Shown: positions 2,255-62,994 of the stretch, piece after piece
Layout of the letters: every line of letters starts with the position of its first letter
Numbering within the stretch: the first letter of the stretch is position 1
Assembly (NCBI GenBank): GCA_963920525.1
Contig: OY986436.1
Span: 23,856,818-23,920,817, forward strand
Source: Dichetophora obliterata
Taxonomy: Eukaryota; Arthropoda; Insecta; Diptera; Sciomyzidae
DNA length: 64,000 nt
Direction of reading: 5' to 3'
Notes under the pieces: generated by a model
Seen by the model: only the letters and a program-made list of their open reading frames with translations
Databases searched by the model: none
What the model was told of the DNA's origin: nothing
Program-made: the position numbers and the translations under genes

Positions 2255-5200
2255 GACGGATTTCGAATCTTATGTTAGAATTGCAAAAAGTTTTTTGACA
2301 CTAGGGTGGACCCTAAATATGTGTTTTTTGTTTTATACTCTTTGGATATGTGCTGGCAATATAAAGGGGTCGCTGATTTCGAATCTTATGTTAGAATTTA
2401 AAAAATTTTTTGACACTAGGGCAGTCCTTTAAAATATGTTTTTGTTTTATACTCTTTTTAGATGCGCTGGTAGCTGATTTTTAATTTGATGTAAGAATTT
2501 TAAAAAGATTTTTCAAACTAGGGTGGACCCTAAATATGTTTTATTTTGCTTTATACTCCTTGTAGATGTGCTGGTCGCTTATCTCGAATCTGATGTTAAA
2601 ATTTAAAATAAAATTTTGACACTAGGGTGGACCCTTAACATGTGTTTTTTCTTTATACTTTTTGTGTATGTGGTGGGAGTATTAAGAGGTGAATTTCGAA
2701 TCTTATGTTAGAATTTCAAAAAGTTTTTTGACACTAGGGTGGACCCTAAAATTGTGTTTTTTGTTTTATACTCTTTGTATATGTGCTGGCAATATAAAGG
2801 GGTCGCTGATTTCGAAATCTTATATTAAAATGAAAAAAATTGTTGACACTAGGGCGGGCGGACCTTGAAAATGTTTTTTTGTTTTATACTCTGTTTAGAT
2901 GCGCTGGAAGCATATTTTTAATTTGATGTGAGAATTTCAAAAAGATTTGACACTAGGGTGGACCCTAAATATGTTTTATTTTGCTTTATACTCTTTGTAA
3001 ATGTGCTGGTCGCTTATCTCGAATCTGATGTTAAAATTTAACATAAAATTTTGACACTAGGGTGGACCCTAAACATGTGTTTTTTCTTTATACTCTTTGA
3101 GTATGTGGTAGGACTATTAAGAAGTCGCTGATATCGAATCGTATGTTAGAATTAAAAAAATGTTTTGATACTAGGGCGGACCTTAAAAATGTGTGTTTGT
3201 TTAATACTCTTCTAGATGCGCAGGTCGCTGATTTGAAATTTGATGTAAGAATTTCAAAAAGATTTTTGACACTAGGGTGGACTTTAAAAATGTGTTTTTG
3301 GCTTTATACTCTTTGTAGATGCTATGGTCGCTGATTTGAAATCTGATGTTAGAATATCCTAAAGTTTTTTGACACTAGGGTGGACCCTAAAAGAGTGTTT
3401 TAGCTTTATACTCTTTATGTATGTGCTGGCATTATTAAGGGGTTGCTAATTTCGAATATTATGTTAGAATTTAAAAAAATTTTGATATTAGGACGGACCC
3501 CACAAATTTGGTTTTTTTATTTAATACTGTTTGTAGATGCGCGGTCGATGATTTAAAATTTGATGATAGAATTTCAAAAAGTTTCTTGTCACTAGGGTGA
3601 ACCCTAAAAATGTGTTTCGTGGCTTTATACTCCTTGTAAATGCGCTGGTCGCTGATTTCGATTTTGATGTAAGAATTTCAGAAAGTTTAAAAATGTGTTT
3701 TTTGTTTTATACTCTTTGTATATGTGCTGGCAATATAAAGGGGTCGCTAATTTCGAATCTTATGTTAGAATTTAAAAAAATTTTCGACACTAGGGCAGTC
3801 CTTGAAAATGTGTTTTTGTTTTATACTCTTTTTAGATGCGCTGCTAGCTGATTTTTAATTTGATGTAAGAATTTTAAAAAGATTTTTCAAACTAGGGTGG
3901 ACCCTAAATATGTTTTATTTTGCTTTATACTCCTTGTAGATGTGCTGGTCGCTTATCTCGAATCTGATGTTAAAATTTAAAATAAAATTTTGACACTAGG
4001 GTGGACCCTTAACATGTGTTTTTTCTTTATACTTTTTGTGTATGTGGTGGGAGTATTAAGAGGTGGATTTCGAATCTTATGTTAGAATTTCAAAAAGTTT
4101 TTTGACACTAGGGTGGACCCTAAAATTGTGTTTTTTGTTTTATACTCTTTGTATATGTGCTGGCAATATAAAGGGGTCGCTGATTTCGAAATCTTATATT
4201 AAAATGAAAAAAATTGTTGACACTAGGGCGGGCGGACCTTGAAAATGTTTTTTTGTTTTATACTCTGTTTAGATGCGCTGGAAGCATATTTTTAATTTGA
4301 TGTGAGAATTTCAAAAAGATTTGACACTAGGGTGGACCCTAAATATGTTTTATTTTGCTTTATACTCTTTGTAAATGTGCTGGTCGCTTATCTCGAATCT
4401 GATGTTAAAATTTAACATAAAATTTTGACACTAGGGTGGACCCTAAACATGTGTTTTTTCTTTATACTCTTTGAGTATGTGGTAGGACTATTAAGAAGTC
4501 GCTGATATCGAATCGTATGTTAGAATTAAAAAAATGTTTTGATACTAGGGCGGACCTTAAAAATGTGTGTTTGTTTAATACTCTTCTAGATGCGCAGGTC
4601 GCTGATTTGAAATTTGATGTAAGAATTTCAAAAAGATTTTTGACACTAGGGTGGACTTTAAAAATGTGTTTTTGGCTTTATACTCTTTGTAGATGCTATG
4701 GTCGCTGATTTGAAATCTGATGTTAGAATATCCTAAAGTTTTTTGACACTAGGGTGGACCCTAAAAGAGTGTTTTAGCTTTATACTCTTTATGTATGTGC
4801 TGGCATTATTAAGGGGTTGCTAATTTCGAATATTATGTTAGAATTTAAAAAAATTTTGATATTAGGACGGACCCCACAAATTTGGTTTTTTTATTTAATA
4901 CTGTTTGTAGATGCGCGGTCGATGATTTAAAATTTGATGATAGAATTTCAAAAAGTTTCTTGTCACTAGGGTGAACCCTAAAAATGTGTTTCGTGGCTTT
5001 ATACTCCTTGTAAATGCGCTGGTCGCTGATTTCGATTTTGATGTAAGAATTTCAGAAAGTTTAAAAATGTGTTTTTTGTTTTATACTCTTTGTATATGTG
5101 CTGGCAATATAAAGGGGTCGCTAATTTCGAATCTTATGTTAGAATTTAAAAAATTTTTCGACACTAGGGCAGTCCTTGAAAATGTGTTTTTGTTTTATAC

Positions 5201-5290
5201 TCTTTTTAGATGCGCTGGTAGCTGATTTTTAAATTGATGTAAGAATTTTAAAAAGATTTTTGAAACTAGGGTGTACCCTAAATATGTGGT
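2255..5290. repeat. Main satellite block with 1374-bp higher-order repeat
   Basis: Monomers of about 106 bp carry GACACTAGGGTGGACCCTAA followed by TATACTCTTTGTATATGTGC and TCGCTGATTTCGAATCT. Thirteen diverged monomers make one higher-order unit: 2411-3784 is repeated at 3785-5158 with offset exactly 1374, with only scattered changes, and a third copy starts at 5159 and stops near 5290. Frames of 63 and 84 codons recur identically at the same offset and are satellite artefacts, not genes. Confidence 0.9.
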
Positions 5291-6203
5291 TTTTTATACT
5301 CTTAAGGAAGTCCAGTTTTTTAAAACAACTTTTCAATCAATTCAAGCTCCATACGAGCAACATGATAAATGTTTAATGCTCAAAGCCTTGTTGCGACATG
5401 AAATAAACATCGCTACCAACGGTAACTGCCTTTTTTTCAACTCTCATAAGAATTTTACTTTATTTATTTTCAGTAAATAAATTTATTTTTCCGAAACTAT
5501 TAAACTTAACATTTTTATTGTTAATTTACATTATTTGTTTTGAAAAAAGTGTATAAAATAAAACTAATAAAAATAATAAAAAAATATATATATACAGATT
5601 TTATTTCGAATTACATTTGGAGTTGACGCAAAAGCGTAGGGAACTTCGTTCCTGACGGGGGTCCCCGACCGCACCACTTTTTTTTCTTATCTCCTGTTTC
5701 TCTTTTCTTCCTTGTATCACCTTGTCTTATCTATTATAGATTTTTATAGGTGTCTTCAGAGGACCTTTTTCTGACCTTTATTTCTATAAAATATTGTTTA
5801 TAAATATTTTCATCTGAAATTTTTCTTTTCCCTCTTTTTTTCAGTATTTGATAGAAGCGATTAGACTCTCTGTTCATATTCTTCTTTATAATAATGCTTT
5901 TGCTAAACTTATATAAGGCCATTCCAAAAAATTACTTCAACAAGTTTCAAATTTAAAATCCATCCTTGTGTTGCAGTTGTTTTACTTGTTCTTTATATTT
6001 TGCATAATATGTTGGTAACTCTTTTGTGGCATTTCGGTGGTGGTTTTGCTTTGTTGTATTAAATCGTAGATTTCAAAATATTTTAGATGCTCACAACAGT
6101 TTTTTTTTTTCTTTCAAAAGAATTTTCTTTGTGCTTATCACATTTTCCAAGCAGTGCACATGCGGTGCATACAATACGTATGTCTGTCTTTTTGTCTGTC
6201 TGT
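5291..6203. other. No recognisable feature
   Basis: The sequence is AT-rich. A 69-codon frame at 5271-5480 starts within the satellite and has a plausible middle part, but nothing supports it as a gene. A GC-richer patch at 5630-5690 (CGGGGGTCCCCGACCGCACC) stands out but is unexplained. Confidence 0.4.
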
Positions 6204-9833: not shown

Positions 9834-10135
9834 AGTATTGTAAGGTGAATTAGGGTTAAGTCAAGGGTAGAATAGAATAGGATAAGATAGAATATTAGGT
9901 TAGGGTATGGTAGAGTAGGGTAGGGTAGAATTGGGTAAAGTAGGGTAGGGTAGGGTTGAGTAGGCTAGGGTATGGTAAGGTAGGGTAGAGTAGGGTGAGG
10001 TAGGGTAAAGTAGGGTAAGGTAGTGTGAAGTAGGCTAGGGTAGAGTAGGATAGGGTAGAATAGGTTAAGGAAAGGTAAGAGTAGGGTAGAGTAGGCTAGG
10101 GAGGGTAAGCTAGGGTAGGGTAGGCTAGGGTAGGG
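9834..10135. repeat. Pentanucleotide array, TAGGG/AGGTA type
   Basis: Variants of a 5-bp unit (AGGGT, AGAGT, AGGCT, AGGAT) repeat for about 300 bp, opening with AAGGTGAATTAGGGTTAAGT. The same opening phrase recurs at 11736, so the array has a larger repeated block. The array is interrupted by the putative LTR that starts at 10136 and resumes at 11445. Confidence 0.9.
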
Positions 10136-10621
10136 TGTGACGGTGGTTTTTTCCAATGGCTGAGGTCAGCTCAGCCGTGCCAGGGTCAAATGAAAGGACC
10201 ACAAACTTCCACAAATAAAAACAGCGCAGTTTTCCAATTAAATTTAACTTCTTTATTTATAACTTTGCCTTATTATAAACTTATTATACTTATTGCAGTG
10301 CAGTGTCGTGTGAGTCGGAGTGAGTGTTCGTCGATGACGGTTGAAGGCTACTGTTGTATATCGGTAGTCGAGAGAGAGGGTTTTAGCGAATGAAAATCGG
10401 TATCGGTGAACGGTAATCGTTAATCGCTGTCGGTAATCGGTTCAATACGTCAACAGGAAGGCTGAAAATAACGCTAAAAGGAATACTCCTTTAATATTCG
10501 AAAACAAAAGATAATAGCAAAGAGGATAGGCAGAGGTTTGGTCGATGAGTCCAAATGAGGACCCTCCAGGATCTGGCCTATTAATAAGATTCAAGTAACA
10601 AAACCAAGAGAATGATTAAAA

Positions 10622-10970
10622 GTGTGCCGCCTCTGGTGGATGCGAACCAGAACTGGTTTGCTCCAGAGGAAGAAGGCACAAAAAATAAAAAAGTTTGCCG
10701 CCTCTGGTGGATGCGAGCCAGAGCTGGTTTGCTCCAGAGAAAGAAGGCACGCGAAAATTAAAAGTGTGCCGCCCCTGGTGGATGCGAACCAGAACTAGTT
10801 TGCTCCAGAGGAAAGAAGGCACGCCAAAAATTTACCGTGTGTTGACTCTGGTAGATGCGAATCAGCAGTGATTCGCTCCAGAGTACGACACTAAAAAAAA
10901 ATCAAAAAAGTGTGTCGACTCTGGTAGATGCGAACCAGATATGATTTGCTCCAGAGTTCTGCGCACAGAA
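10622..10970 (+). repeat. Five tandem ~72-bp hairpin units in the putative LTR
   Basis: Units begin near 10624, 10694, 10766, 10839 and 10912. In unit 1, an outer stem GTGCC/GGCAC (10624-10628 with 10675-10679) encloses CTCTGG/CCAGAG, then an inner stem GCGAACCA/TGGTTTGC closing a GAAC loop. Unit 4 changes both sides together: outer GTGTTG/CGACAC, middle ACTCTGG/CCAGAGT, inner GCGAATCA/TGATTCGC with loop GCAG. Unit 5 keeps ACTCTGG/CCAGAGT. Paired changes suggest that the fold, as RNA or as a DNA palindrome, is what was kept. The units lie upstream of the TATA-like site. Confidence 0.8.
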
Positions 10971-11033
10971 CCGCAGTCCAACTCCGTGAGCTTACCTAAA
11001 AGGAATGCTGACTAGGTTGGTTTTGTGCCGCCC

Positions 11034-11045
11034 TTTTATATTATG
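11034..11045 (+). promoter_or_regulatory. TATA-like box of the putative LTR
   Basis: TTTTATATTATG sits just after the hairpin array and about 355 bp before AATAAA at 11400-11405. The position fits the U3/R border of an LTR. Confidence 0.35.
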
Positions 11046-11444
11046 TGGTGTTAGGAACCAGTTAGGAATTATACGTTTGCCGTGTGTATTGCTGTAGTGT
11101 ATTATTTGAAGCTACTCTTTTGTGTTATTTTGTCATAAGTAAGTATGTGTGTTTGTGTGTCGTCGGTTTGTTTTATGGTGTCATGATTAGGTATGTAGCG
11201 TGTGTCTGAATGTATGGTTTAGTGACGGGTGCAGTAGTTAGGTATTTGCTGTCGCTGTTATTTTGTCATAAGTAATCATTGTGTGTCGGTATGTTCAACA
11301 GCTGCAATATAATATTTAATGTTATTTATATAGTAATAATAATATTATAGCTTAAGTTATAATATAACAATTATTTAAATTAGTTTATAGATTAGTAATA
11401 ATAAATTGTATTGGTAGTTGTAATATTTGTAACGTCACGTTACA

Positions 11445-12270
11445 AGGGTACGGTAGGGTAAGGTAGTTTAGGGTAGAGTATGCTAGGGTAGGCTAAGGTA
11501 GGGTACGGTAGTTTAGGGTAGAGTAGGCTAGGGTAGAGTAGGGTAGCGTAGGGTAGGGTAAGGCAAGGTAAGGTTAGGTTGGGTTAGATAAGGTTAGGTA
11601 ATGTAAGGTAAGGGTAGGTAAGGTAAAGTAAGGTTAGGTAAGGTTAAATAAGTAAAGGTAAGTAAAGGTAAATGATTGGAGATCAAGTAAATAACTGAAG
11701 ATCAAGTAAATGATTGGAGATCAAGTAAATGATTGGAAGGTGAATTAGGGTTAAGTCTAGGGTAGAACAGGGTAGGATAGAATAGGATAGAATAGGACAG
11801 GATAGGATAGGATAGGATAGGATAGGATAGGATAGGATAGGATAGAATAGGATAGGATGGGATAGGATAGGGTAGGGTTGAGTAGGATATGATAGGATAG
11901 GGTAGGTTAAAGCAGGGTAGAGTAGGATTGGGTAAGGTAGGGTGGAGTAGGCTAGGGTAGAGTAGGGTGGGGTAGAGTAGGGTAAGGAAAGGTAAGGTTA
12001 GGTTAGGTTAGGTAAGATGAGGTATGGTAAGGTAAGGTAAGGTATGCTATGCTATGCTATGCTATGCTATGGGATGGTATTGTATGGTATGGTATGGTAT
12101 GGTATGGTATGGTATGGTATGGTATGGTATGGTATGGTATGGTATAGTAAGATAAGTTAAGATAAGGTAAGACAAGTTAAGATAAGATTAGATAAGATAA
12201 GGTAAGGTAAGTTTAAGTAAGATAATTAAAGGTAAGTTAAAGTAAGATAATTTAAGGTAAGTAAACTTGA
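11445..12270. repeat. Pentanucleotide arrays of successive sequence types
   Basis: The array changes type along its length: GGGTA/AGGTA, then GATAG (about 11760-11880), then GGGTA again, then GCTAT and GGTAT (about 12045-12145), then AAGAT/AAGGT. All share a 5-bp period. Runs such as GGTATGGTATGGTATGGTAT are nearly perfect. Confidence 0.9.
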
Positions 12271-13215: not shown

Positions 13216-13655
13216 TCAAGTCAAGTCAAGTCAAGTCAAGTCAAGTCAAGTCAAGTCAAGTCAAGTCAAGTCAAGTCAAGTCAAGTCAAGTCAAGTCAAG
13301 TCAAGTCAAGTCAAGTCAAGTCAAGTCAAGTCAAGTCAAGTCAAGTCAAGTCAAGTCAAGTCAAGTCAAGTCAAGTCAAGTCAAGTCAAGTCAAGTCAAG
13401 TCAAGTCAAGTCAAGTCAAGTCAAGTCAAGTCAAGTCAAGTCAAGTCAAGTCAAGTCAAGTCAAGTCAAGTCAAGTCAAGTCAAGTCAAGTCAAGTCAAG
13501 TCAAGTCAAGTCAAGTCAAGTCAAGTCAAGTCAAGTCAAGTCAAGTCAAGTCAAGTCAAGTCAAGTCAAGTCAAGTCAAGTCAAGTCAAGTCAAGTCAAG
13601 TCAAGTCAAGTCAAGTCAAGTCAAGTCAAGTCAAGTCATGTCAAGTCAAGTCAAG
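13216..13655. repeat. Near-perfect (TCAAG)88 array
   Basis: TCAAG is repeated about 88 times over 440 bp with one visible substitution, TCATG near 13636-13640. It then decays into TTACG/TTAAC. It is far more uniform than the other pentamer arrays, so it expanded recently or is poorly assembled. Confidence 0.95.
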
Positions 13656-14890
13656 TTACGTTAACTTAAGTTAAGCAAAGTTAGTAAAGAAGACAAAGTT
13701 CGCAAGATATTGTCGCATTAATAATCCTAACAAAATTGAAATAAAATTATGTCAATTCTGTTAAAGAAATTTAATATTTGAAAAACATATACATGTTTAA
13801 ATATTTTCGAATATTAAACACTTACCATTTACGATGATGATGAAAATGATTGACATGAAAATAATCTTTAATCCACATTTTGATGACATTATTTTCGACG
13901 TGCGAACCGAGTATTAAAAAAAATTACTAAAAAAAATAAAAAATAACACAAAATAAACTCTCCGCTACTGTGTGCTGCAGGAATATGCATCCATGTATGA
14001 TGAGTTTACTAGGACCTTTGCGTTTGTTCCTGTTACTTTTGCTGTTGTTGTGATCTCACTGTTGTACAATGAAGTTCAACGTTATATTATTTTTGCTTTG
14101 ATTTCTGTCACAAAAATGCACAAAATTGCTTTAAATGTGGCTAATCTATGCTAAAGAGTAGCCATGACAGTTGCGTTTTTTTCTTCTCTTTTTTTGGCGA
14201 TTGCGATGGTGGTAGAGATGACGGTGGTTATTGTTGGATATGGCAATGGCCAAGCCGCAGCACCGAAAGAGCGCAAGAATATCAAAAACACACGTTTAAC
14301 GTTGCTTCTTTCTTTAATTTTTTAATTCGTTATGCATGCGTTCACTTTTTAGACATTTTTTCTTTATTTTTGTTATTTTTAGTATGGGTTTAAAAACACG
14401 TATTTAGTTATTTCCATGATTTTAAAAATGAACACTTTATATGGAATTTTTTGGAAAAAATTTTTTGGCCAAAAAAATGGTTCTTCCAAAAACTTTTCGT
14501 CGCTAAGAAGAATTACAGTGAATTGTAATGATTTCAATTAATCTGAAAAGAAGCAAGAAAGAAAAAATATTGTAAGTGAGATAAGGCGATTATAGGATAA
14601 TAAATTTTGTTGCATGCTTTTAGGCAATATTTTAAAAATAAAAGATAAGATAATTAATGTTACTGCATACTTTTAGGCACTATTTTAATATAAAAATATC
14701 TAGATTGACTTCACATCAGTGGCGTAGAAAGCTTTTTGATGGGGGGATCTCCGTTAAAAATACAATAACTTAAAAAAGTATTCTTTTAAATACCTGATTA
14801 CATCATGACTTTTTCGTAAAGTCGAATGTCATGTTTCAGAGCCTTACTTTGTTTAAACGGCGAAAAGCGGTATTTAGGTAAAAAGTTATG
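13656..14890. other. No recognisable gene
   Basis: AT-rich sequence with short open frames of 60-81 codons that lack family features. The phrase CAGTGGCGTAGAAAG near 14718 may mark the edge of a repeat. Confidence 0.4.
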
Positions 14891-53444: not shown

Positions 53445-54487
53445 GTTTCCACAGATTTTCCGATGTTTCCTTAGCATCTGCTGTCTTTATGAAACCTTCG
53501 ACCAGATCCGAATGAGCACACATAAAATTGACTTAAATTTAAAATTGTCTTTAAGCTGAAATTTTCAATTGATTACTCAATTCTTAACAATTTTAAATCT
53601 TTGGGAGATAATTTAATTTATAATCACAATAATTAGGATAGATACTGAAATAAATTGGCTCACTACCTGCTCTTCTGCTTTCACAAAGTCTTTTTGTTTA
53701 TTTTTTCGGTTTTCTCCAAATAAATGAATCCGCTGAGGTTGGATCAGACAACCATTCTGTAATCTCTTTTTGTCTTAGAAATAATCTAACAATACTTATA
53801 GAAAACATTCGATCGCAGTTCATTAATAAACAAGTTTATTGAATTAGTTTCAATCATCGCTACTTCAATTGTACGCTCTTCTGTGGTTTTACAAATTGTT
53901 ATATTTTTTGTTTATCTTTTATAATTTCTAGGTTACTTCGATATAATGTGTTTCATTTTTTTGTTGTTGTTACTCTTTTCATAAAATGTAGAAACATTGC
54001 AATTTTAACTGGTTTTTTTCTTGCATTGTCTGGTAAAAAAATCAATTTTAGTTTACGGTTTGCTATATAAATGAAATATATAGGAGAATGACAATATAGG
54101 AGAAGAGAACAAGTAGGTTACATAATATATAATTGCATTAAATCAAATTCAAGGAAATACAGTGTTTTGAAGTGAAAACAGCTAGCATTTTACTGGTAAA
54201 AAAAAATCCTGATTAGTATAAAATTATGCAGTAGCAAACCAACCGCCGACATGGTTTCATAAGGGAATTCTTTAAGATTTATAATAGTATGTATATATAT
54301 AATATTTATATGATCAACAATTTCTTAATATTGTTTGCTAGCTTAATAAAAATAAAATATGTTTTGTTTTATTTTTGTGTTTGTTTTTTTTTGCAATTAT
54401 TTTGAAATCTTTGCGGAAAACGTTTTTGACTGCATCCGAACCGATGAGGGCGACTGCTATGTGTTATGATAGTTGCGTGAGGGTTTT
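53445..54487. other. 3' flank and 3' UTR of stc
   Basis: No other gene is seen. A minus-strand AATAAA lies at 54373-54368, about 115 bases after the stc stop codon, and is a candidate polyadenylation signal. Confidence 0.45.
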
Positions 54488-57400
54488 CTATCGCTTGATT
54501 CCCCAGGCATTGTTGCTTGGCACTGGTACACGTCGTTGACCGGCCTCGCGTTGCATTACTTCCATGATGCTGGTGGCAGGCAGCCAGGACTAAAGTAAGC
54601 AGCCAGGAATAGTAAAGATATGAATTATAGAAGGGAAAATGAATCAGAAACATATTTGCAAAAGAAAAACTTACGCGATCTTTTTGCGCGGTGGCTACAA
54701 CATTGCGATTTGGCTCAGCATCGTAGGCGACCGAATCAACACCGAACATTTCGCACATTTCATGTACTAGTTGACGCTTTTCGCGATTCATTGTTGGAAA
54801 TGAATGACTGCGTGACTTTTGCTTGCTTTCCTTGGCCAACTTGACGAGTGTGGTGAGTGCATCGTAAATGGATTTAACCAAGACAGGATCACGTTTGGCA
54901 AAATTGCGTATGAAATCAGAATATTTGGTCATAAGCTTCTGTGGCAAATCAGGATTGCGTATTTGTAGTCCAATGGCGAGGCGGCGATTGCGTTCCAACA
55001 GACGGCACTCCTCATTACAGTCGAGTCTGAAAATAAGAGGGGAAACGTGTAAAGGGTTCCAAAATGCTACAAAAAAAAGCACTAACGGCTAATGATTAAA
55101 ACAAATTCTAATGTGTACTAATTTTAAGCGCATTTTTTGGTAAAATTTCTCTAAAATTCTTATAAAAATAATCAATGGCAAACTGAACAAGTGTTTTTTT
55201 TTTGTTTGCTACACCAACTCATCAGCAGTCTTTTGAGATTTGTAAGGTCAACGAACTTTAAAAGCCATATATCACAAGATTCGACAAAACCAAAGCGAAA
55301 TTATACGTGCCTTTGACTACAAAGCAGCGATTTTGGAATCAATGGCAAATTGCGCAAGTGTTTCGTTGTTTGCTACACCAACTCATCAGTAGTCTTCTGT
55401 GATTTTCAAAGACAAGAAACACTAAAAGCATTATACCACAAGATTCGGCAAAAGCAAAGCGGAATTATACGTGCCTTTGCCTACGAAGCAAATACTTGAC
55501 TAAATACTTTTTAAAACTCCTTGTCGTGCCTATAAAATTTTTCTCTTTTTTACAACCTTGCAGAAGGCAAAACTTAAAAAGTTCACAATTTTATTAAAAA
55601 ATACTTACGTTTTATTGGTTTTGTTCGTCTTTACTGGTGCTAAAATCTCGCTCAATTCCATATAGTTGCCGCGCTGCATTTCGGCCATGGACGAAGCCAA
55701 TTGAGCAGTAGCAATGCGACTGTATTCGCGTGCCAAGTCATAGCAGGCACGCAGCTGCTTGCGATTGCCGCATTCGCATTGAACCTCAACCTAAGAGCGT
55801 GAAGTAACGTGAATAAAATACTTTTGAGAAAAAAAAAACAACTTGGGTCATACCATTTCCTTGCATGGCGTTTCTGGACACACGCCATCGTGACATGTAG
55901 CCATACATTTGTGACCACAGGCGGCACGCAATGCCGTGCAACTTTGCTTACACACCTCACCTGTTGTCAGCTGACAAACACCCTCGTGACACGAACGTAT
56001 ACATTTATGACGCCCACACGGCAGTGGTTTCTGGCATGCCAGTCCGCAGCTGAAACTCTGCTGCGAGCATGGAATGGTTTTGCGTTGTTCATGCTGCCCG
56101 AAGCACCATTTGGTAGTGAACATCATGCAAGGTGGGCAGCTGGCAGCCGAATGGCAGTTATGCTGCGGTGCATGCTCACAAGGATGTAAACGCGAGCATG
56201 GACGCTTGCATATTGGGCGTTTGGTGCCGCATGGCACAGGTGGATAGATAACCTCAGCACCGCATTCGCAGAACAGCTCCTCAAAGGAGCTGCGATAACA
56301 TGGTGGACAATTGCCTCGATGGCATTGCTGATCGCACTTGTGCTTGCCACAGGACAGCGTATAGTTGCAAGGCAGCGGACAGATATGATCGATATCAATG
56401 CAACATTCCTGGTTGCATTTATGCTTGCCGCAGGAGCGTTTCTTGACACAGCGCTTTTTGCAACGGGCATCGTCGGCACGCGTCGAGAGCTGGCGACATT
56501 TAATCATTTGATCCATGTGACCACAACGACATTTGACTGCCGTCTGCTTGTTGCAAGGTGGGCAATTTCCCAAGTGGCACTTGCTGGTGCAGTGATGGGG
56601 ATGGGCTGTAAAAAGAAAAAAAATATATGAGGTTATTTTAAAAAAATAATTTAACTTAATATAGACAATATTGACCTGCTTTGCCACAACGCAAAGTTTT
56701 TCCGCAAATGCCTTCACATACGGGTATTGGATCCAGGCATGAAGTGCGCTGTTCATTCATTACAGGCAACTTGCCACAGGGGCACGAGGTGACCATTTCG
56801 GGGCTCTGTTTGCACGGACGACACTCGCCGGCATGGCAACAATCTTTGCACTTGTGATTGCCACATGTCAAATCGCGTCCACAAGGCTTGCCACAGGAAT
56901 AGTTGTGCTTTTCGTGCGAATCACGTGTGCAAGCTACTTGACGCTCCTGCTTGGTGCAATGACATTTCTGCTCCACCTTCTCAGCACATGGTTGGCACTT
57001 GCCAGCGTGACATTTGTCAACGCAAGTATGTAGCTCGCAGTTGAGTAGCTTAGCGCAAGTGGCATCGCATTCGATTGGCTCCTTGAGGCAACACTGCATA
57101 ACTTTTGTTGTTTTGCCACAGCCACATTCACGCTTAACATTGGCCTGGCACGGTGGGCAAGGGCCTGGATGACATAGCAAAGTGCAGGCATGGGCACAAC
57201 CTTCGACACGTCCACAAACCTCGCCACAAGAGTGTGCTATGTCTTGACGCGTGTAGGTTGGATTTTTGAGCTTGCCACAGAAGCAGTAGTAGTCGCGTGG
57301 CACTTCTTTAACAACATTTTGACAGGCAGGGCAACGCCAACCGTCATCGGATTTAGAACTAAAGGCCCACTTGATGATGCACGTTAGATGTAGAATGTGA

Positions 57401-57549
57401 TAGCAATTGTTGCAAGACCAGACCGAGTGATGTGCTCTAATGGGTTCAACACAGACCAGACACTCAAGACGACGCGTTTCTATGTCACGCATTAATTTTT
57501 CACGCTGCGATAGCTTCTCATTTTCCGGATAGACTTTCTTTGGGGATTT
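54488..57549 (-). CDS. stc: shuttle craft / NF-X1-type zinc-finger protein, C-terminal exons (5' partial)
   Basis: Five minus-strand exons join cleanly: 57549-56676, 56605-55854, 55790-55609, 55026-54675 and 54589-54488, with donors such as GTCAAT, GTATGA, GTAAGT and acceptors ending CAG or TAG. The product starts here at KSPKKVYPENEKLSQREKL and has a RING-like finger (LECLVCVEPI ... GWRCPACQ). About nine NF-X1 repeats follow (for example CGKHKCNQECC, CHRGNCPPC, CHEGVC). Then comes an R3H single-strand nucleic-acid domain (SFPTMNREKRQLVHEM), and the end is RRVPVPSNNAWGIKR with stop at 54490-54488. STC is the fly relative of NFX1, a nuclear nucleic-acid-binding regulator needed for nervous-system development. 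The N-terminal exons are not found up to 64000. No frameshift is seen, so the gene looks functional. Confidence 0.95.
55171..55504. repeat. 167-bp tandem duplication in an stc intron
   Basis: ATCAATGGCAAACTGAACAA at 55171 restarts at 55338. Both units contain TTTGCTACACCAACTCATCA and ATTATACGTGCCTTTG. The units differ by about 10-15 percent by eye. Confidence 0.85.
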
Positions 57550-61374: not shown

Positions 61375-62994
61375 AGGTATGCGACAAAAAGATAAGGTCA
61401 GTCTGTTTTTTCTTTGTGGAGCTCAATTTGAGTGATTACTCTTTGGATCTTGTGGATTTTATTGTTCGATAGAGAGAATGCAACAAATAAATTCTAATAT
61501 AATGAGTAAACAAAGTCCCGTTAGTTTTAAATACATCAAAAATGAAAAAAAGCTAAATTTTGCTGCGACAAAATGATAAGGTCAGTTGCAATTTTTGCAT
61601 TGTTTGGTCAGGTGAGTGTTCCGTTTGTATTAAAATTTGATTTATTTTAATAATTAAATTATTAAACAGTTTTTGAAGAGAAATGGGTCGTGGTAAGAGT
61701 CTCACTACTTACGAGAAAGGATTTATTGACGGAAAGGTTGTTGAAGGAGTTGGAATGAGACAAATCGCCAGGGACCTTGGAAGATCACTGTGTGTTGTAC
61801 AAAATTATTTGAAGGATCGAGAAAATTATGGGAAAAAAAAGAGTCCTGGTCGAAAAAAAGTACTTTCCGCGACCACAGTGCGCTCCATTGGACGAATTGC
61901 CTCAAATTCTACCATAAGTGCAGCAAAAATTAAGGCAGAGCTTAAGCTTACTGCATCCAAGAGGACAGTACTCAGAGCCATCGACGGAAATGAATATTTG
62001 AAGCGAGCCAAAATGAAAAAAATTCCTTGCCTCAATGCTGACCATAAAGCGAAGAGGCTTGCATTCGCTAAATTAAACATGTCAACCAATTGGCATCAGG
62101 TAATTTTATAATAAATAAAAAGAAAATCATTTGTAGGTTTTAATGACTGTTTTTTTTTTCTTTCAGATGATTTTTTCGGACGAAAAAATTCAATCTTGAT
62201 GGCCCAGATGGTTTGAATTATTATTGGCGGGATTTAAGAAAGGAGCCTCGATATTTTTCAAAAAGAAATTTTGGTGGTGGTTCGTTGATGGTGTGGGGAG
62301 CATTCAGCTCTATTGGAACATAGCCTCTCGCATTTCCGTCAACACGCATGAACAGTGCTGAATACCAGGAAGTACTCTCCACATGTTTGCTGCCTTTTCT
62401 TGCTGAAAATCGAGAAGCGCTGCTTGTTTTTCAGCAAGATAATGCAGCGATCCATGTGAGTCGGTCAACAAAGGAGTGGTTTGTGGGCAATTCAGTGGAA
62501 GTCTTGGACTGGCCCTCACGCTCACCTGACCTGAATCCCATGGAGAACATGTGGGGAATTCTTGTACGTGAAGTTTTTGCCGATAACAGGCAGTTTAGCA
62601 CTGTTGCTGATCTGAAAGTGGCCATACTGAATGCCTGGAGAGAAATTCGGCAAACAACATTCGCGAGCCTGGTAGGATCGATGCCGAGGCGTATTTTAAA
62701 GACAATACAAAAAAATGGAAGCCAAATTAATTAAAAAAATTTATTCTGTACATTAATAAACTTGTTTTCGTAAAAAATTGCAACTGACCTTATCATTTTG
62801 TCGCAGCAAATTTTAGCTTTTTTTCATTTTTGATGTATTTAAAACTAACGGGACTTTGATTACTCATTATATTAGAATTTATTTGTTGCATTCTCTCTAT
62901 CGAACAATAAAATCCACAAGATCCAAAGAGTAATCACTCAAATTGAGCTCCACAAAGAAAAAACAGACTGACCTTATCTTTTTGTCGCTTACCT
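61375..62994 (+). mobile_element. 1620-bp Tc1-like element with IR/DR ends, TA-flanked
   Basis: Both ends carry ~230-bp inverted repeats beginning AGGTATGCGACAAAAAGATA and, at the right, closing GCTTACCT. TA lies on each side (61373-61374, 62995-62996). Each repeat holds two related sites, GCGACAAAAAGATAAGGTCA (outer) and GCGACAAAATGATAAGGTCA (inner), about 184 bp apart. This is the IR/DR layout of several Tc1-type transposons. The arms are nearly identical, so the copy is young. Confidence 0.9.
61683..62734 (+). pseudogene. Tc1-like transposase with intron and few defects
   Basis: Exon 1 (61683-62099) encodes MGRGKSLTTYEKGFIDGKVV, two helix-turn-helix domains with the GRKKVLS linker, and ends NWHQ. 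GTAATTTT starts a probable 67-bp intron ending TTTCAG at 62166. Exon 2 resumes MIFSDEK (first catalytic Asp) and then shows a small indel in a run of A, a TAG after FSSIGT, and continues open from 62348: LLVFQQDNAAIHVSR (second Asp), SPDLNPMENMWGILVREV (catalytic Glu), ending at 62734. This gives a DDE set with only two visible lesions. Confidence 0.9.

What the first reader, a model, noticed from the sequence alone, without database searches (positions are those of the whole stretch)
10622..10970. Tandem array of five covarying hairpins inside a putative LTR
Five ~72-bp units each fold into an outer stem, a CTCTGG/CCAGAG stem and an inner 8-bp stem with a 4-base loop. Between units 1 and 4 both strands of the stems change together: the inner pair moves from GCGAACCA/TGGTTTGC to GCGAATCA/TGATTCGC and the outer from GTGCC/GGCAC to GTGTTG/CGACAC. 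Drift in a plain tandem repeat would break pairs rather than preserve them. The array lies just upstream of a TATA-like site. It might be a protein-binding palindrome array (enhancer or insulator) or a structured RNA. I know of no named element with this design. This is the strongest candidate for something undescribed here.
Basis: partly seen in the sequence, partly recalled or inferred. Interest (0 to 1): 0.75.

Follow-up and report, generated by a model that had tools for sequence, protein, structure and literature searches.

The report
Hairpin repeat array in retrotransposon LTR
A short palindromic module is repeated about 4 to 12 times just after the predicted RNA start of a (probably insect) LTR retrotransposon family; it appears to be kept by selection in copies that multiplied, but the covariation that first suggested a structured RNA is largely shared descent.

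Summary
Array and palindromes are real: five units of 71-73 bp, each with a 6-bp stem, an asymmetric bulge (1 and 5 nt), an imperfect 8-bp stem and a 4-nt loop. It lies in a solo LTR (10136-11444, AGGG duplications) of a Ty3/gypsy element with Osvaldo-like features. TATA and initiator lie upstream, so the array is inferred to be transcribed leader in R; first core 52 nt after the predicted start in 39 of 44 loci with both signals.

350 clean units from the same genome give two results. The 38-nt core looks constrained in lineages that spread: shared/private changes 22/264 in stems, 2/43 in five of six bulge columns, 16/48 in the loop. The covariation claim fails a phylogeny-aware test: no stem pair significant, arm swaps between unit classes non-significant, one stem pair mismatched in most units. 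Two pairs do show compensated states.

Best reading: a multi-copy cis-acting binding module, somewhat more likely RNA hairpins than DNA sites, not settled.

The parts
10132..10135 (.). target-site duplication AGGG, left
   Evidence: matches 11445-11448; 22 of 23 solo LTRs of the family have exact 4-bp duplications. In this TAGGG-like repeat a single match alone would be weak
10136..11444 (-). solo LTR, 1309 bp; sense strand is minus (TGTAAC...CCGTCACA)
   Evidence: both ends found in 27 of 37 loci; PBS and PPT adjoin the ends in copies with internal sequence
11445..11448 (.). target-site duplication AGGG, right
11034..11040 (-). TATA box TATAAAA
   Evidence: TATA plus initiator found in 44 of 54 loci, constant spacing in 43 of 44
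11004..11014 (-). initiator-like TAGTCAGCATT; predicted start A at 11009 (inferred, no transcript data)
10906..10976 (-). sense unit 1 (class C); core 10919-10956
   Evidence: preceded in sense by GTTCTGTGCGCAGAAC, itself able to form a small hairpin (read from the sequence)
10833..10905 (-). sense unit 2 (class B); core 10846-10883; the only perfect inner stem of the five
10760..10832 (-). sense unit 3 (class A); core 10773-10810
10689..10759 (-). sense unit 4 (class A); core 10702-10739
10618..10688 (-). sense unit 5 (class A); core 10631-10668
10252..10257 (-). candidate poly(A) signal AATAAA; R would run from about 11009 to just past here
   Evidence: read from the sequence; the end of R is inferred

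Best explanation
The array is a cis-acting module of an Osvaldo-like Ty3/gypsy retrotransposon, placed in the R region so that it would lie near the start of the RNA leader and again near the 3' end of the same RNA. Each 38-nt core (sense: CTCTGG-A-GCRAAYCA-N4-TGRTTCGC-ATCYA-CCAGAG) is most likely recognised as an RNA hairpin whose asymmetric internal loop (A opposite AUCYA) is part of the binding site. About 4 to 12 tandem copies give a multivalent platform for a protein, Gag or a host factor, that acts on the retroelement RNA (packaging, export or translation). Shown: the LTR, its orientation, the fixed position after TATA/initiator, repeat number variation, constraint on the core. Inferred: transcription and its start, the RNA form, the protein, the step it serves.
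For: Orientation: PBS tggcgcccgagcagggac directly after the LTR and a G-rich PPT before the other LTR of one copy; gag, protease (weak), RT, RNase H and integrase fragments on that strand. Position: first core at initiator A +52 in 39 of 44 loci with both signals. Constraint: changes shared by 3 or more loci versus private to one locus, stems 22/264, five bulge columns 2/43, loop 16/48, pair 0/39 11/27; stem versus loop p = 2.4e-4, five bulge columns versus loop p = 0.004, core versus loop, pair 0/39 and flanks p = 1.4e-11. Geometry: spacers of 1 and 5 nt are natural in a hairpin and awkward for a protein reading two equal half-sites on duplex DNA (inference). Pair 13-22 has C-G, U.G and U-A states (218, 75, 42 of 350) and pair 0-39 C-G and A-U (199, 95 of 350). 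Hairpin propensity: median z of 254 distinct cores -2.63 sense, -3.07 antisense.
Against: No stem pair covaries beyond a phylogenetic null. RNAalifold on 34 units gives a covariation term of only -0.27, 9 pairs, one of them with double changes. Arm swaps: 19 (outer), 50 (inner) and 15 (inner plus middle) of 120 permutations do as well on the sense strand, 14, 40 and 12 on the antisense. Pair 10-25 is A.C in 222 and A.A in 32 of 350 units. The antisense core is the more stable in 179 of 254, and every window unit folds better as antisense RNA. In whole-leader folds of 12 copies the unit's own inner stem exceeds probability 0.5 in 21 of 74 units and its own middle stem in 8 of 74 on the sense strand; the whole-array fold pairs units with each other. 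Stem-keeping among changes shared by 3 or more loci (17 of 33) is not significantly above private ones (110 of 291), p = 0.14. No significant excess of sense-strand wobble at event level, 16 of 28, p = 0.14.
Confidence: 0.42

Rival explanations
1. Duplex DNA array: each core is an inverted pair of half-sites for a sequence-specific DNA-binding protein, and the array works as an enhancer, downstream promoter element or insulator, as the Su(Hw) array does in gypsy.
For: Conservation follows primary sequence, five of six bulge columns included. The variable A.C pair is simply R in each half-site under this model. Cores sit in AT-rich spacers. The gypsy insulator is 340 bp, in the 5' UTR, 12 sites in AT-rich sequence (PMC2374998 passages). 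No RNA covariation shown.
Against: Unequal spacers (1 and 5 nt) between CTCTGG and GCRAAYCA in the two half-sites (inference). Su(Hw) consensus is not enriched: 11 matches with up to 2 mismatches in L005 against 9.55 expected, one of them in the array. No factor known.
Confidence: 0.36
2. The core is kept for something other than binding of a regulator: the palindromes feed long inter-unit duplexes, for example a source of small RNAs, or aid strand transfer in reverse transcription.
For: The whole-array fold pairs units with each other and own stems are improbable in most units of the leader folds; both strands fold; R is copied in minus-strand strong-stop DNA (general knowledge).
Against: Does not explain why five bulge columns are as conserved as stems or the fixed distance from the predicted start. 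No small-RNA data seen.
Confidence: 0.1
3. No function: a minisatellite in an LTR, homogenised by unequal exchange, with pairs shared by descent.
For: Unit number differs between the two LTRs of single elements, 10 and 12, 6 and 9. Covariation follows descent.
Against: Homogenisation should treat core, loop and spacer alike, yet shared changes are depleted in the core only. The class order C, B, A is kept in 37 of 54 loci.
Confidence: 0.12

Closest known systems
Osvaldo lineage of Ty3/gypsy retrotransposons
   Same: Long LTR (1.1-1.8 kb in 27 copies here; 997-2055 bp reported), mostly 4-bp target duplications, tRNA-Lys-like PBS, Ty3/gypsy domain order (PMC3286476 passages)
   Different: No palindromic repeat array is mentioned in the passages shown; RT/IN phylogeny not done here
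gypsy (Drosophila) Su(Hw) insulator
   Same: About 340 bp of conserved cores in AT-rich sequence in the 5' UTR of an insect Ty3/gypsy element (PMC2374998 passages)
   Different: Su(Hw) sites are short and not hairpins; consensus not enriched here; this array is inside the LTR
R-region stem-loops of retroviruses
   Same: Long R regions can keep stem-loops, with conservation in both halves of the stem (PMC3601003 passages)
   Different: The passages shown describe tandem repeats in U3, not a tandem array of hairpins in R
Retroviral constitutive transport element (MPMV CTE)
   Same: Structured RNA with internal loops that recruits a protein (PMC7551171 passages)
   Different: CTE is one stem-loop of 150-175 nt with two internal loops; here many short units; no sequence comparison made
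Tandem repeats in mosquito LTR elements (Mag-like and non-autonomous elements of Culex)
   Same: Complex tandem repeats inside LTR retroelements (PMC3286476 section 14)
   Different: Those lie between the LTRs; no palindromic unit described in the section read

Membership tests
LTR retrotransposon (solo LTR) | Recurrent exact ends TGT...ACA with target-site duplications | tested here: met
   27 of 37 loci with both ends; 22 of 23 solo LTRs with exact 4-bp duplications, L015 fails
LTR retrotransposon (solo LTR) | PBS and PPT next to the LTR in copies with internal sequence | tested here: met
   PBS in L013 and L016, L037 by its first bases; G-rich PPT in L011, L012 and L038
Ty3/gypsy | gag, PR, RT, RNase H, integrase in that order | tested here: met
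   Pfam hits on separate pieces of one copy, frames broken; the protease hits are below Pfam's cut-off
Osvaldo lineage | LTR of about 1-2 kb and 4-bp target duplication | tested here: met
Osvaldo lineage | PBS complementary to tRNA-Lys | tested here: inconclusive
   PBS sequence seen; that it fits tRNA-Lys is recalled, no tRNA was compared
Osvaldo lineage | RT/RNase H/IN phylogeny | not tested
   no named reference sequences used; own-genome integrase search did not complete (15 tries)
gypsy-type Su(Hw) insulator | cluster of YRYTGCATAYYY sites | tested here: not met
   11 matches with 2 mismatches allowed in L005, 9.55 expected, one in the array
Described structured RNA (Rfam 15) | match to a family | tested here: not met
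   none over the array at gathering score; two chance-level hits of E 1.5 and 2
Covariation-supported RNA structure | stem pairs covary beyond phylogeny | tested here: not met
   302 sequences, 60 null simulations, own script, best stem pair E 33; low power, few changes in stems

The most novel reading that the evidence does not exclude
The R region of this retrotransposon carries a new kind of RNA element: a tandem, copy-number-variable array of hairpins of one design with a conserved asymmetric internal loop, set at a fixed distance from the cap, that binds the element's own Gag or a host protein in a multivalent way and controls the fate of the genomic RNA.
Probability: 0.22. Interest if true: 0.6.

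Novelty: new variant of a known kind. Interest (0 to 1): 0.4.

Why it matters
Few insect LTR elements have a mapped cis-acting leader signal (recalled). Here many natural copies with about 4 to 12 units, three or more unit classes and a map of constrained and free positions exist in one genome, so a binding partner and copy-number effects can be tested directly. It also shows how class-level differences in a tandem palindrome can look like covariation.

Tried and rejected
Rejected or not supported: covariation as proof of RNA structure; hammerhead or other Rfam RNA; Su(Hw)-type array; a tRNA-derived unit (unit length and a B-box-like GGTTCGCATCC suggested it, consensus recalled, but no tRNA was called there); viral origin (19-base match in two IMG/VR records, nothing else of a 1601-base query similar). 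The core pattern has no exact match in the bacterial/archaeal contigs or in IMG/VR. Outer-stem covariation GTGCC/GGCAC to GTGTTG/CGACAC: one C-G to T-A change is visible by eye on the plus strand, but some arms of other classes pair as well or better. A covariance model was built but not searched with.

Dropped rows: L033 and L034 as tandem copies of L032 (left out, removed as duplicates); 11 of 254 units and 31 of 381 units without a clean core; L046 holds no LTR and was not used. The 34 units of A2 were drawn at random by class from 169. The constraint test uses units found by similarity to the core, which could hide strongly changed cores; flank columns are ungapped, so the loop comparison is the cleaner one; p values treat tree events as independent.

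Literature: search listings (titles and starts of abstracts); passages of PMC3601003, PMC3286476, PMC7551171, PMC2374998 and section 14 of PMC3286476. None of what was shown names such an array; that is not proof of absence, most subscription papers are not held.

Full report
What is there. The window is part of a 1.31 Gb assembly in 76 contigs. A gene in the window is a shuttle craft / NF-X1 homologue; the host is probably an insect, species unknown. At 10618-10976 Tandem Repeats Finder and the repeat finder give five units with start-to-start spacing 71, 71, 73, 73. Each has C(T/C)CTGG / CCAGAG and an inner 8-nt inverted pair around four bases. The five fold better than most or all shuffles on the plus strand (z -2.9 to -6.1), less so on the minus strand (z -0.6 to -4.7).

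The element. The own-genome search with the array scored 40 of 229 candidates and returned 74 matches; a second search with an older array scored 40 of 222 and returned 90; both are lower bounds. Of 37 loci oriented for, 27 hold both LTR ends; leaving out four LTRs that belong to two copies with internal sequence, 22 of 23 solo LTRs have exact 4-bp duplications (L015 fails). The window copy is 10136-11444 with AGGG on both sides. In a copy on C3 (LTRs in L016 and L011, duplication AAAG) the LTR is followed by tggcgcccgagcagggac and preceded at the other end by a G-rich tract. Pfam finds Retrotrans_gag, sub-threshold aspartyl protease, RVT_1, RNase H, integrase zinc finger and core on separate pieces of its internal part, all on the strand that equals window minus; the frames are broken. 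Long LTR, 4-bp duplication and a tRNA-Lys PBS are given for the Osvaldo lineage in Culex (PMC3286476 passages); that this PBS fits tRNA-Lys is recalled, and a tree was not made.

Orientation and position. The sense strand is minus. TATAAAA (11040-11034) and TCAGCA (11011-11006) precede the array; both signals were found in 44 of 54 loci, spacing is constant in 43 of 44, and the first clean core starts 52 nt after the initiator A in 39 of 44. AATAAA lies at 10257-10252. So the array is inferred to be in R, present near both ends of the RNA.

Unit classes. From 37 loci 254 units were cut. In the window's subfamily the sense order is class C, class B, then class A repeated; 37 of 54 loci begin with C, B by clean cores. 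Older copies have other first units and extra distal classes. Over 54 loci, 4 to 13 unit hits were counted per locus; L069 and L026 hold two arrays, and partial hits count, so about 12 is the largest single array. The two LTRs of single elements differ in number, 10 and 12, 6 and 9, so the array changes length after or during insertion.

Covariation. In 350 clean units pair 13-22 shows C-G 218, U.G 75, U-A 42, C.A 9; pair 0-39 shows C-G 199, A-U 95, A.G 22; pair 10-25 is A.C 222, G-C 71, A.A 32, A-U 18. A count on 34 units gives 23 doubly changed cells against 13.3 in shuffles, none of 500 as high, but that control ignores descent. With a tree and an independent-sites null, no stem pair is significant (best E 33) and the strongest couplings are between columns that are not partners and mark classes. 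Swapping arms among five classes is not significant on either strand. RNAalifold's covariation term is -0.27. My null is a simple imitation of R-scape, and stems change little, so power is low. The result is 'not shown', not 'disproved'.

Constraint. I counted changes on the unit tree (321 sequences) as private (one locus) or shared (three or more loci). Private changes are mostly decay after insertion; shared ones were carried by multiplying lineages (inference). Stems 22 shared / 264 private, five bulge columns 2/43, the free bulge column 31 9/14, loop 16/48, pair 0/39 11/27; flanks 5.1 shared per column against 0.5-1.0 in stems. Stem versus loop p = 2.4e-4; whole core versus loop, pair 0/39 and flanks p = 1.4e-11. 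The p values treat tree events as independent. The core is therefore kept, five of six bulge columns included, while loop and spacer are freer. This is the strongest positive result and points to recognition of the 38-nt core.

RNA or DNA. For RNA: inferred transcribed position at a fixed distance, unequal spacers of 1 and 5 nt, two compensated pairs, a freer apical loop. For DNA: sequence rather than pairing is kept, a common mismatch, AT-rich spacers, similarity in layout to the gypsy insulator (PMC2374998 passages), though its Su(Hw) consensus is not enriched. Strand-specific wobble tests do not decide: variants in 3 or more loci 16 sense-type against 12 antisense-type events, private ones 12 and 12, p = 0.14; the antisense core is more stable in 179 of 254. 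In whole-leader folds of 12 copies the own inner stem exceeds 0.5 in 21 of 74 units, and the whole-array fold pairs units with each other. I put RNA at 0.42 and DNA at 0.36.

Verdict. A real palindromic repeat module, apparently under selection, in the R region of an Osvaldo-like LTR retrotransposon; the covariation claim is not supported; mechanism open. Tandem arrays in LTR elements are known (PMC3286476); this design in R is not named in the listings and passages seen.

Noticed in passing
9896-10136 and 11445-12261: The LTR sits inside degenerate pentamer repeats (TAGGG, TAGGA, GTAAG and relatives); similar to insect telomeric TTAGG only in style (recalled).
   Followed up: no
13216-13656: Nearly perfect array of 88 TCAAG pentamers.
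   Followed up: no
2368-5295: About 28 copies of a diverged 104-bp repeat; a 435-bp period is reported over 2260-3211.
   Followed up: no
54369-57549 (minus): Host gene like shuttle craft / NF-X1 with an R3H domain in a nearby frame.
   Followed up: partly
G000 C2:80008944-80026916 (L032-L034): Four LTR copies in a tandem segmental repeat of about 5375 bp; the three fetched have the same flanks.
   Followed up: no
L042, sense leader between predicted start and unit 1: A roughly 400-bp insertion in the leader; its two ends look like inverted repeats by eye.
   Followed up: no
10957-10976 and copies: The 5' flank of sense unit 1 is GTTCTGTGCGCAGAAC, a possible 6-bp hairpin that competes with the outer stem and recurs in many copies.
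   Followed up: partly
L036:935-2367: Open stretches after the integrase core in the C3 copy have no Pfam hit; the first also has no PDB match.
   Followed up: partly
61677-62734 (plus): Fragments of a Tc1/mariner-like transposase (for the first part; the second not scanned).
   Followed up: no
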